DNA from: Alphaproteobacteria bacterium
Lineage (GTDB): Bacteria > Pseudomonadota > Alphaproteobacteria > TMED109
Length of the DNA: 64,000 bases
Direction of reading: 5' to 3'
NCBI GenBank assembly: GCA_022825235.1
Contig: JAJDYI010000004.1
Coordinates: 124,001 to 188,000, forward strand
The notes beneath the pieces were generated by a model. That model did not search any database, was not told the origin of the DNA, and was given only the letters and a program-made list of their open reading frames with translations. Below are positions 37,530-39,915 of this stretch, piece after piece. The stretch's first letter is position 1; every line of letters starts with the position of its first letter. A program made the translations under genes and the position numbers.

Positions 37530-38255
37530 ATGGGGCAGGACGGATCGTTGCTCGTGGCCGCAGTCCAGACGTTCGCTCTGAACGAGTCGGGTCGAGACTT
37601 CGTCGTGGGCGACATTCACGGCACGTTCCCGGTCCTGGAGGGAGTCCTTGACGAGATCGGGTTCGACGTGAACCGCGACCGGCTGTTCTCGGTCGGCGAC
37701 CTCGTGGACCGGGGCCCCGCATCGGCAGACGCCCTGACCTGGTGGACCTACCCGTGGTTTCATGCCTGCCGCGGGAATCACGAGCAGATGCTGCTGGACT
37801 GCCACCGTGACCCCGCCAACTGGTCGCTGTGGGCGATGAACGGGGGGACGTGGTGGGCGGACGTCCCGCCTGCCCGGCGGGAAGCCTTTGTCGAGGCGTG
37901 TCGCGAGCTTCCCTTCGCGATGGAGATCGACACCGCCCGGGGGGCGGTCGGCATCGTGCATGCCGATCTGCCGCGAGGGTGTACCTGGGATGGGCTCCTC
38001 GAAGCGCTGGCTCGCGGTGACCGCGATGTCATGGCGGCGGCGCTGTGGTCGCGAACCCATATCCGCGACGATGCGCCGGTGCCGGATGCCGGTGAGCGGA
38101 TTCGGCACGTCTACTGTGGCCACACGGTCATCCGGCATCCGAAGACGCGCGGCAAGGTCACCTGGATCGACACCGGCGCCTGCTACGCGGACCGCTTTTC
38201 GCCTGCCTGCCTCACCCTGCTGGAGTTCCATCCGGGCGGCGATGCGGGCACCTGA
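37530..38255 (+). CDS. PrpA-like serine/threonine protein phosphatase (metallophosphoesterase)
   Basis: A 241-residue PPP-type metallophosphoesterase. The metal motifs are VVGDIHGTFPVLE, SVGDLVDRGPASADAL, CRGNHEQM (the proton-donor His) and VYCGHTVIRHPKTRG, as in PrpA/PrpB and lambda phosphatase. It should remove phosphate from Ser/Thr/Tyr phosphoproteins or small phosphoesters. The first 20 residues are outside the fold, so a GTG codon about 9 residues in is an alternative start. It is an isolated gene. Confidence 0.88.
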   Translation: MGQDGSLLVAAVQTFALNESGRDFVVGDIHGTFPVLEGVLDEIGFDVNRDRLFSVGDLVDRGPASADALTWWTYPWFHACRGNHEQMLLDCHRDPANWSLWAMNGGTWWADVPPARREAFVEACRELPFAMEIDTARGAVGIVHADLPRGCTWDGLLEALARGDRDVMAAALWSRTHIRDDAPVPDAGERIRHVYCGHTVIRHPKTRGKVTWIDTGACYADRFSPACLTLLEFHPGGDAGT

Positions 38256-38399: not shown

Positions 38400-39014
38400 T
38401 CAGGTCGCGCCCCGATGCCGCAGGGACCCGACCACGATCCCCTCGATCCGGAACTGTTCGTCGCCGGGCGGGTTTCGCTGGAAGTCCGGGTTGTCGGGTA
38501 CCAGCACCGTGCGATCGTTGTCGCGGTGCAATCGCCTGAGAGTGACTTCACCGCCGACGCTAGCCACGACCAGACTCCCGTGCCGAGCATCGGTCGCCTT
38601 CTGGACGGCGACGAGGTCGCCCGCGTGGATTCCCGATCCAGCCATGGAATCGTCGGGGACGCGGAGCAGGAAATCCGTCCGGATGCGGAACAGGGCGATG
38701 GCGGTGGACGCGGAGACGGTGTCCTCGACGTTCTCGTCCGCGAACAGTTCGGTGTCGGCGGCGATCCGGCCGAGAATGGGTATGTCGCCGGCCGCGGAGG
38801 AGGAGCCCCTCGGCCCACGATCGGCGGGGTCGCCGTGTACGAGCTCGATCGCCCCCTTGCTGGTCAGGCGGTTGAGGAAGTACTGGACCGTGCCCAGCGA
38901 CTCCCCCCCCATGGCGTTCTGAAGGTCGGCGCGCGAAGGGACGCGACCGGTTCGCTCGACGTGCTGCTCGAAGGCTTCCAAGAGCTGCGCTTCGCGGCGG
39001 GTGAGGTCGGGCAT
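38400..39014 (-). CDS. LexA-like repressor with altered self-cleavage residues
   Basis: A 204-residue protein that aligns along its length with E. coli LexA: winged-helix N-domain (LTRREAQLLEAFEQHVERTG to GAIELVHG) and S24 C-domain (FLLRVPDDSMAGSGIHAGDLVAV). Ser123 matches the nucleophile Ser119. The general-base lysine (Lys156 in E. coli) is Arg160 (EVTLRRL), 37 residues from the serine as in E. coli. The scissile Ala-Gly is Ala86-Asp87 (GRIAADTEL). I checked the codons for both changes in the DNA. Family knowledge predicts poor or no RecA-stimulated self-cleavage, so it may be a constitutive repressor or a paralogue. It does not resemble the usual alphaproteobacterial LexA. nth is upstream on the same strand. 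Confidence 0.85.
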   Translation of the reverse strand: MPDLTRREAQLLEAFEQHVERTGRVPSRADLQNAMGGESLGTVQYFLNRLTSKGAIELVHGDPADRGPRGSSSAAGDIPILGRIAADTELFADENVEDTVSASTAIALFRIRTDFLLRVPDDSMAGSGIHAGDLVAVQKATDARHGSLVVASVGGEVTLRRLHRDNDRTVLVPDNPDFQRNPPGDEQFRIEGIVVGSLRHRGAT

Positions 39015-39255
39015 CGTCCGGTCTGGGGAGAAACTGCGTTGCTTCTACCACACCCGGAATCCGCGCTCCACAGTGCCGTGCGCCGATGGCGTGGCGCTAG
39101 CCCCATGGCCGTCAGGCCCGGGATGCCTGGTCCCGGTAGCCGTTGCCGGTTGCCTGTCCGCGCGCGGCCGTCCGGGCCGGTCAGCACGTAGCGGCGGCCC
39201 CCTCGGAACGGTTCGGCTGACGAGGGCAGCGCCCCCAGCTGGCGGAGATGGAACG

Positions 39256-39915
39256 TCAGGCAGTGCGCTCGGGAAACCGGCAAAGGTCCGGAATCAGGCA
39301 GGCCGAGCACTTCGGTTTGCGGGCAACGCACGTGTAGCGCCCGTGCAGGATCAGCCAGTGATGGGCGTGCAGCAGGTGCGGCTCCGGGATCCGCCTGAGC
39401 AGCGCCTTCTCGACCGCGAGCGGATCCTTCCCCGGTGCCAGGCCCGTCCGGTTCGAGACCCGGAAGATATGGGTATCGACGGCCATCGTCGGTTGGCCGA
39501 ACGCCACGTTGAGGACGACGTTGGCGGTCTTGCGGCCGACCCCGGGCAGGCTTTCGAGCTGTTCGCGCTCGGCCGGCACTTCGCCGTCGAATTCCTCGAG
39601 CAGGCGCCTGGACAGCGCGATGACGTTCTTGGCCTTGTTGCGGTAGAGCCCGATCGTGCGGATGGCCTCCCGCAAGCGCTCCTCGCCGAGCGCGACCATG
39701 GCGGCCGGGTTGTCGACCGCCCGGAAGAGCGGCCCGGTGGCCCGGTTGACGCCGGCGTCGGTCGCCTGCGCCGAGAGCACCACCGCCACCAGCAGGGTGT
39801 ACGTGTTGCGGTACTCGAGATCGCTGCGCGGCGACGGGTTGGCGCGGGCGAACCGTTCGAACGCTTCGGCCACGTCCTTGAGCGGCATGGGCCGGGGCGC
39901 TCTAGCGGCGGTCAT
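39256..39915 (-). CDS. nth: Endonuclease III
   Basis: Base-excision DNA glycosylase/AP lyase for oxidised pyrimidines, 219 residues. The helix-hairpin-helix is LESLPGVGRKTANVVLNV with the catalytic lysine in GRKTAN; the catalytic aspartate is in MAVDTHIFRVSNR. The C-terminal [4Fe-4S] cluster is C-x6-C-x2-C-x5-C (CVARKPKCSACLIPDLC). MTAARAP (39915) or MPLKDV (39888) can be the start. It lies upstream of the LexA-like gene on the same strand with a 241-base gap. Confidence 0.96.
   Translation of the reverse strand: MTAARAPRPMPLKDVAEAFERFARANPSPRSDLEYRNTYTLLVAVVLSAQATDAGVNRATGPLFRAVDNPAAMVALGEERLREAIRTIGLYRNKAKNVIALSRRLLEEFDGEVPAEREQLESLPGVGRKTANVVLNVAFGQPTMAVDTHIFRVSNRTGLAPGKDPLAVEKALLRRIPEPHLLHAHHWLILHGRYTCVARKPKCSACLIPDLCRFPERTA

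What the first reader, a model, noticed from the sequence alone, without database searches (positions are those of the whole stretch)
38400..39014. LexA homologue with both self-cleavage elements altered
The protein aligns gap-free with the LexA C-domain: Ser123 is kept, but the catalytic lysine is Arg160 (37 residues after the serine, as in E. coli Ser119-Lys156) and the scissile Ala-Gly is Ala86-Asp87. Both changes are clear in the codons (AGG; GCC GAC). LexA self-cleavage needs the lysine as general base, so this repressor may be uncleavable, or use arginine at high pH, and would not report DNA damage in the normal way. Two independent losses argue for selection, not an error.
Basis: partly seen in the sequence, partly recalled or inferred. 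Interest (0 to 1): 0.65.

Follow-up and report, generated by a model that had tools for sequence, protein, structure and literature searches.

The report
Natural uncleavable second LexA repressor
A group of uncultured alphaproteobacteria carries, beside its normal DNA-damage repressor LexA, a second LexA-like protein whose self-cutting site is altered in every species examined, so it probably represses genes without being switched off by DNA damage.

Summary
On the minus strand (39014 to 38400) lies an intact 204-aa LexA homologue (TIGR00498, 141.9 bits, cutoff 110.95) with Ala86-Asp87 at the scissile bond, Ser123 kept, and Arg160 at the lysine position. It is not a sequencing error. The same gene, in the same gene order, is found in all seven genomes of the genus (one copy is cut by a contig end). 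All six complete copies have Asp at P1', Ser, and Arg, the last from two different Arg codons; P1 drifts between Ala, Pro and Ser. dN/dS is about 0.2-0.27 between subclades. The same genome has a canonical LexA (Ala-Gly, Ser, Lys), 92-100% identical across the genus, which presumably runs the SOS response. The paralogue groups with gammaproteobacterial LexA, not the host's own, so it was probably acquired. Seventy-eight other LexA-type proteins surveyed keep AG/S/K. The Asp is the same change as E. coli lexA3 (G85D), the textbook uncleavable allele. Best reading: a natural "Ind-minus" LexA paralogue, still a repressor but uncoupled from RecA. Its operator, targets and any alternative release signal remain unknown. 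Precedents exist (Synechocystis LexA; phage 186 CI, with Arg at the base position).

The parts
38400..39014 (-). lexA-like paralogue ('lexA2'), 204 aa plus stop
   Evidence: TIGR00498 141.9 bits (cutoff 110.95); PF01726 and PF00717 above cut-off
38826..39014 (-). codons 1-63: LexA-type winged-helix DNA-binding domain (PF01726); residues 41-57, which include the recognition helix, are invariant in the genus
38430..38780 (-). codons 79-195: S24/LexA C-terminal domain (dimerisation, latent self-cleavage)
   Evidence: PF00717 80 bits, residues 79-195
38754..38759 (-). codons 86-87 GCC GAC: altered scissile bond Ala-Asp (same P1' change as E. coli LexA G85D, lexA3)
38646..38648 (-). codon 123 TCC: retained nucleophile-position Ser
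38535..38537 (-). codon 160 AGG: Arg at the catalytic Lys position
39015..39255 (-). 241-bp gap between nth and lexA2 that should hold the lexA2 promoter; a TATGGTAGA/TGTGGTAGA block some 35-45 bp upstream of the ATG is conserved in the genus; no significant palindrome found
39256..39915 (-). nth, endonuclease III (HhH-GPD); directly upstream of lexA2 throughout the genus
37530..38255 (+). calcineurin-like phosphoesterase gene, convergent with lexA2; syntenic in the genus

Best explanation
It is a genus-wide second LexA-like repressor, probably acquired from outside the alphaproteobacterial LexA lineage, that has lost RecA-stimulated self-cleavage. SHOWN by sequence: the LexA DNA-binding and S24 domains are intact; the P1' residue is Asp and the general-base position is Arg in all six complete orthologues; Ser is retained; the gene is under purifying selection; a canonical LexA coexists. 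INFERRED: it still dimerises through the S24 domain and binds an operator with its own specificity (the recognition helix differs from both E. coli LexA and the host LexA1); it cannot cut itself, so it stays bound during DNA damage; its occupancy is set by its own expression or by a non-RecA release step (modification, proteolysis or an antirepressor). Autoregulation is likely but untested.
For: LexA membership. Asp/Ser/Arg in six of six complete orthologues, with different Arg codons AGG and CGC and P1 varying A/P/S. dN/dS 0.215-0.273 between the two subclades over the whole gene. Identical gene order in the genus. Canonical LexA1 in the same genome with Ala-Gly, Ser, Lys, 92-100% identical across the genus against 69-95% for lexA2, with the promoter element GCGAACAAAGTAGAACA identical in 7 of 7 genomes. 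AG/S/K in 78 other LexA-type proteins. LexA G85D (lexA3) binds RecA* but does not induce SOS (PMC6363387); the G85D crystal structure 1JHF is a top match by sequence and fold. Tree: lexA2 falls with gammaproteobacterial LexA, LexA1 with alphaproteobacterial LexA.
Against: No cleavage assay. Ser123 is kept in every orthologue, which is unexplained if the active site is dead. No operator or target gene was found, so repression itself is inferred. The AlphaFold model is only moderate (mean pLDDT 60.9; cleavage loop under 50).
Confidence: 0.75

Rival explanations
1. Damage-coupled by proxy: like phage 186 CI, the uncleavable repressor is released by a separate antirepressor or protease that LexA1 controls, so it still responds to DNA damage one step removed.
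For: Phage 186 CI has Arg152 at the catalytic-base position (PMC12984324) and is switched off by the LexA-controlled antirepressor Tum (PMC7708051). The canonical LexA1 is present.
Against: No antirepressor candidate is adjacent: the neighbours are nth, SDR, GST, amidase, EI24-type membrane protein and phosphoesterase genes. The LexA1 promoter element was found essentially only at lexA1 itself.
Confidence: 0.12
2. Residual or conditional self-cleavage: retained Ser123 with Arg160 as a weak base cuts slowly or at high pH, or cuts another protein in trans.
For: Ser123 is invariant in the six orthologues.
Against: P1' Asp is the known lexA3 block; three orthologues have Pro and one Ser at P1; no canonical substrate site remains in the protein.
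Confidence: 0.05
3. A decaying, non-functional gene on its way to loss.
For: It evolves faster than LexA1 and than its neighbours; related copies elsewhere in the genus are more degraded.
Against: Intact reading frame with no indels in six species, dN/dS about 0.2-0.27, invariant recognition-helix region, Arg kept through synonymous codon change.
Confidence: 0.06

Closest known systems
E. coli LexA, lexA3 (Ind-) G85D mutant; structure 1JHF
   Same: Same fold and domain order; the same Asp at P1' of the scissile bond; uncleavable but still a repressor
   Different: lexA3 is a mutant allele of the cell's only LexA; here the change is fixed across a genus in a second paralogue, is accompanied by Lys-to-Arg, and the recognition helix differs
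Synechocystis PCC 6803 LexA
   Same: Natural LexA without Ala-Gly and with a broken Ser-Lys dyad, acting outside the SOS response (PMC7567884)
   Different: There the Ser is lost; here Ser is kept, Lys is Arg, and a canonical LexA coexists
Phage 186 CI repressor
   Same: S24-fold repressor with Arg at the base position and a non-canonical active site (PMC12984324)
   Different: Phage repressor relieved by Tum; its DNA-binding domain is of another type (general knowledge); only a weak structural match here (2fjr_A, E 0.07)
LexA2 paralogues (Leptospira interrogans; also Pseudomonas and Xanthomonas, the latter two from general knowledge)
   Same: Second, probably horizontally acquired LexA (PMC3789691)
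   Different: Leptospira LexA2 keeps Ser-Lys and a Cys-Gly bond and appears to be cleaved after UV

Membership tests
LexA repressor family (TIGR00498) | Whole-protein match above the curated cut-off | tested here: met
   141.9 bits against 110.95
LexA repressor family (TIGR00498) | LexA-type winged-helix DNA-binding domain plus S24 C-domain | tested here: met
   PF01726 42.2 bits and PF00717 80 bits
Functional SOS LexA (self-cleaving) | Ala-Gly (or Cys-Gly) scissile bond | tested here: not met
   Ala-Asp in the window; Pro-Asp or Ser-Asp in relatives
Functional SOS LexA (self-cleaving) | Ser-Lys catalytic dyad | tested here: not met
   Ser123 present, Arg160 in place of Lys in six of six
Functional SOS LexA (self-cleaving) | RecA*-stimulated autocleavage | not testable with these tools
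   Needs purified protein
Functional SOS LexA (self-cleaving) | SOS-type operator at its own promoter | tested here: inconclusive
   No CTGT-N8-ACAG, GAAC-N4-GTTC or GTTC-N7-GTTC site upstream of lexA2 in the orthologues; palindrome scan not significant; an operator of unknown sequence cannot be excluded
LexA2 paralogue class | Second lexA of foreign phylogenetic origin beside a canonical lexA | tested here: met
   Tree (quick method, long-branch warnings) and canonical LexA1
Synechocystis-type non-SOS LexA | Regulates non-SOS genes | not tested
   No regulon could be predicted

The most novel reading that the evidence does not exclude
A genus-wide switch from damage-released to RecA-independent LexA-type repression: a captured LexA, locked by the lexA3 change plus Lys-to-Arg, took over a non-SOS regulon and is released by a non-RecA signal sensed through the former active site, which would explain why the Ser is retained.
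Probability: 0.2. Interest if true: 0.65.

Novelty: new variant of a known kind. Interest (0 to 1): 0.42.

Why it matters
It is a natural, evolutionarily maintained counterpart of the classic uncleavable lexA3 allele, living beside a normal LexA. It makes testable whether LexA-fold repressors can be kept for regulation unrelated to DNA damage, and warns that automatic annotation as 'LexA' (here well above the curated cut-off) can label proteins that are unlikely to work as SOS switches.

Tried and rejected
Sequencing or assembly error: rejected, six separately assembled genomes agree. Duplication of the host's own LexA: not favoured, the tree puts lexA2 with gammaproteobacterial LexA (weak on exact placement). 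Phage origin: no relative confirmed in viral contigs; best phage-collection matches are 35% identical and the annotated ones are bacterial lexA. Operator search: standard LexA boxes absent; palindrome scan no better than column shuffles (38 of 100 reach it); the conserved promoter block was found only at lexA2 itself. Papers on LexA K156R: one hit, incidental; Slilaty and Little 1987 not held.

Full report
Observation. The ORF is on the minus strand, ATG at 39014, stop ending at 38400, 204 aa. NCBIfam calls it LexA well above the curated cut-off and Pfam finds both LexA domains. In the alignment to E. coli LexA, Arg160 falls on Lys156 and Asp87 on residue 85; the alignment has a 2-residue insertion near 103-106, so it is not gap-free across the C-domain, but the Ser-to-Arg stretch is.

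Conservation. The window lies in a 3.85-Mb genome in 87 contigs. Six of seven genomes of the genus have a full-length copy (the other five are 69-92% identical to the window's); the seventh has the start of the gene at a contig end. GenBank titles of relatives are uncultured Alphaproteobacteria or Rhodospirillales MAGs. All six have Asp at P1', Ser, and Arg. The Arg codon is AGG in two and CGC in four, so Arg persisted through synonymous change. P1 is Ala, Pro or Ser. Nei-Gojobori dN/dS between the two subclades is 0.215-0.273 for the gene. Gene order amidase, EI24-type membrane protein, phosphoesterase, lexA2, nth, SDR, GST, ApbA is the same in every complete stretch examined.

Second LexA. 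The genome has a canonical LexA at C85, with Ala-Gly, Ser and Lys. It is 92-100% identical across the genus, against 69-95% for lexA2, and its promoter carries GCGAACAAAGTAGAACA, identical in 7 of 7 genomes. This resembles the alphaproteobacterial GTTC-N7-GTTC box (general knowledge), here with a spacer of 6. No such box was seen at recA. So the SOS switch is presumably LexA1.

How unusual. Among non-redundant LexA-type proteins from the loci fetched by two searches of nearly 400 genomes each plus relatives, 78 have AG/S/K. The exceptions are the six orthologues, two more degraded relatives within the genus (L043, L044), and one (L033) where the Lys appears shifted by an alignment gap. These loci are the best matches, not a random sample.

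Origin. In a quick maximum-likelihood tree, lexA2 and the L043 protein form a 98% group on the side of LexA proteins from outside the class, which match E. coli-type LexA, while LexA1 sits with the LexA of other members of the class. The tree warns of long branches, so the exact donor is not claimed. No viral relative was confirmed.

Mechanism. Asp at P1' is the lexA3 (G85D) change; [quoted passage not shown] Its structure 1JHF is the best sequence match in the PDB and third by fold. Lysine is part of the Ser-Lys dyad that does the cleavage (stated in PMC7567884; the original paper is not held). With Arg there and Asp (and often Pro) at the bond, cleavage is very unlikely. The DNA-binding domain is, in the comparisons between subclades, the better-conserved half, with residues 41-57 invariant, so DNA binding is the likely retained function. 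Residues corresponding to the E. coli contact helix (S-P-N-A-A-E-E-H) read S-L-G-T-V-Q-Y-F here, so the operator is expected to differ. No operator was identified. The AlphaFold model is moderate and used only to confirm the LexA fold.

Known relatives. Synechocystis LexA lacks Ala-Gly and the Ser and acts outside SOS. Phage 186 CI has Arg at the base position and is released by the LexA-controlled antirepressor Tum, which suggests one way such a protein could still be damage-responsive. Leptospira LexA2 is an acquired second LexA that appears to be cleaved.

Verdict. Real, conserved, and most likely a DNA-damage-blind LexA paralogue. It is a new variant of a known kind. Function beyond that is inference.

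Noticed in passing
L043:2986-3600 (G004:C20): A further LexA-domain protein, 40% identical to the window protein, with neither the scissile bond, Ser nor Lys: a more degraded relative in the same genus.
   Followed up: partly
L044:2956-3627 (G006:C29): Another LexA-domain protein with Lys kept but Ser and cleavage site lost; a TniQ-like ORF (judged by eye) lies about 1.2 kb downstream.
   Followed up: partly
L005:1459-1767 (G000:C56): A C-terminal S24 fragment 46% identical to the L044 protein, without an N-terminal domain in frame: probably a decayed copy in the window's own genome.
   Followed up: partly
L004:1501-1800 (G000:C38): A short S24-domain ORF with Ala at the Ser position and no Lys at the base position.
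   Followed up: no
G004:C44:5358-5529 (L009): The lexA2 promoter block occurs twice, on either side of a run of N: probably an assembly-gap duplication.
   Followed up: no
L053 (G000:C77), upstream of recA: No copy of the lexA1 promoter element upstream of recA, so recA may be outside LexA1 control or use a diverged box.
   Followed up: no
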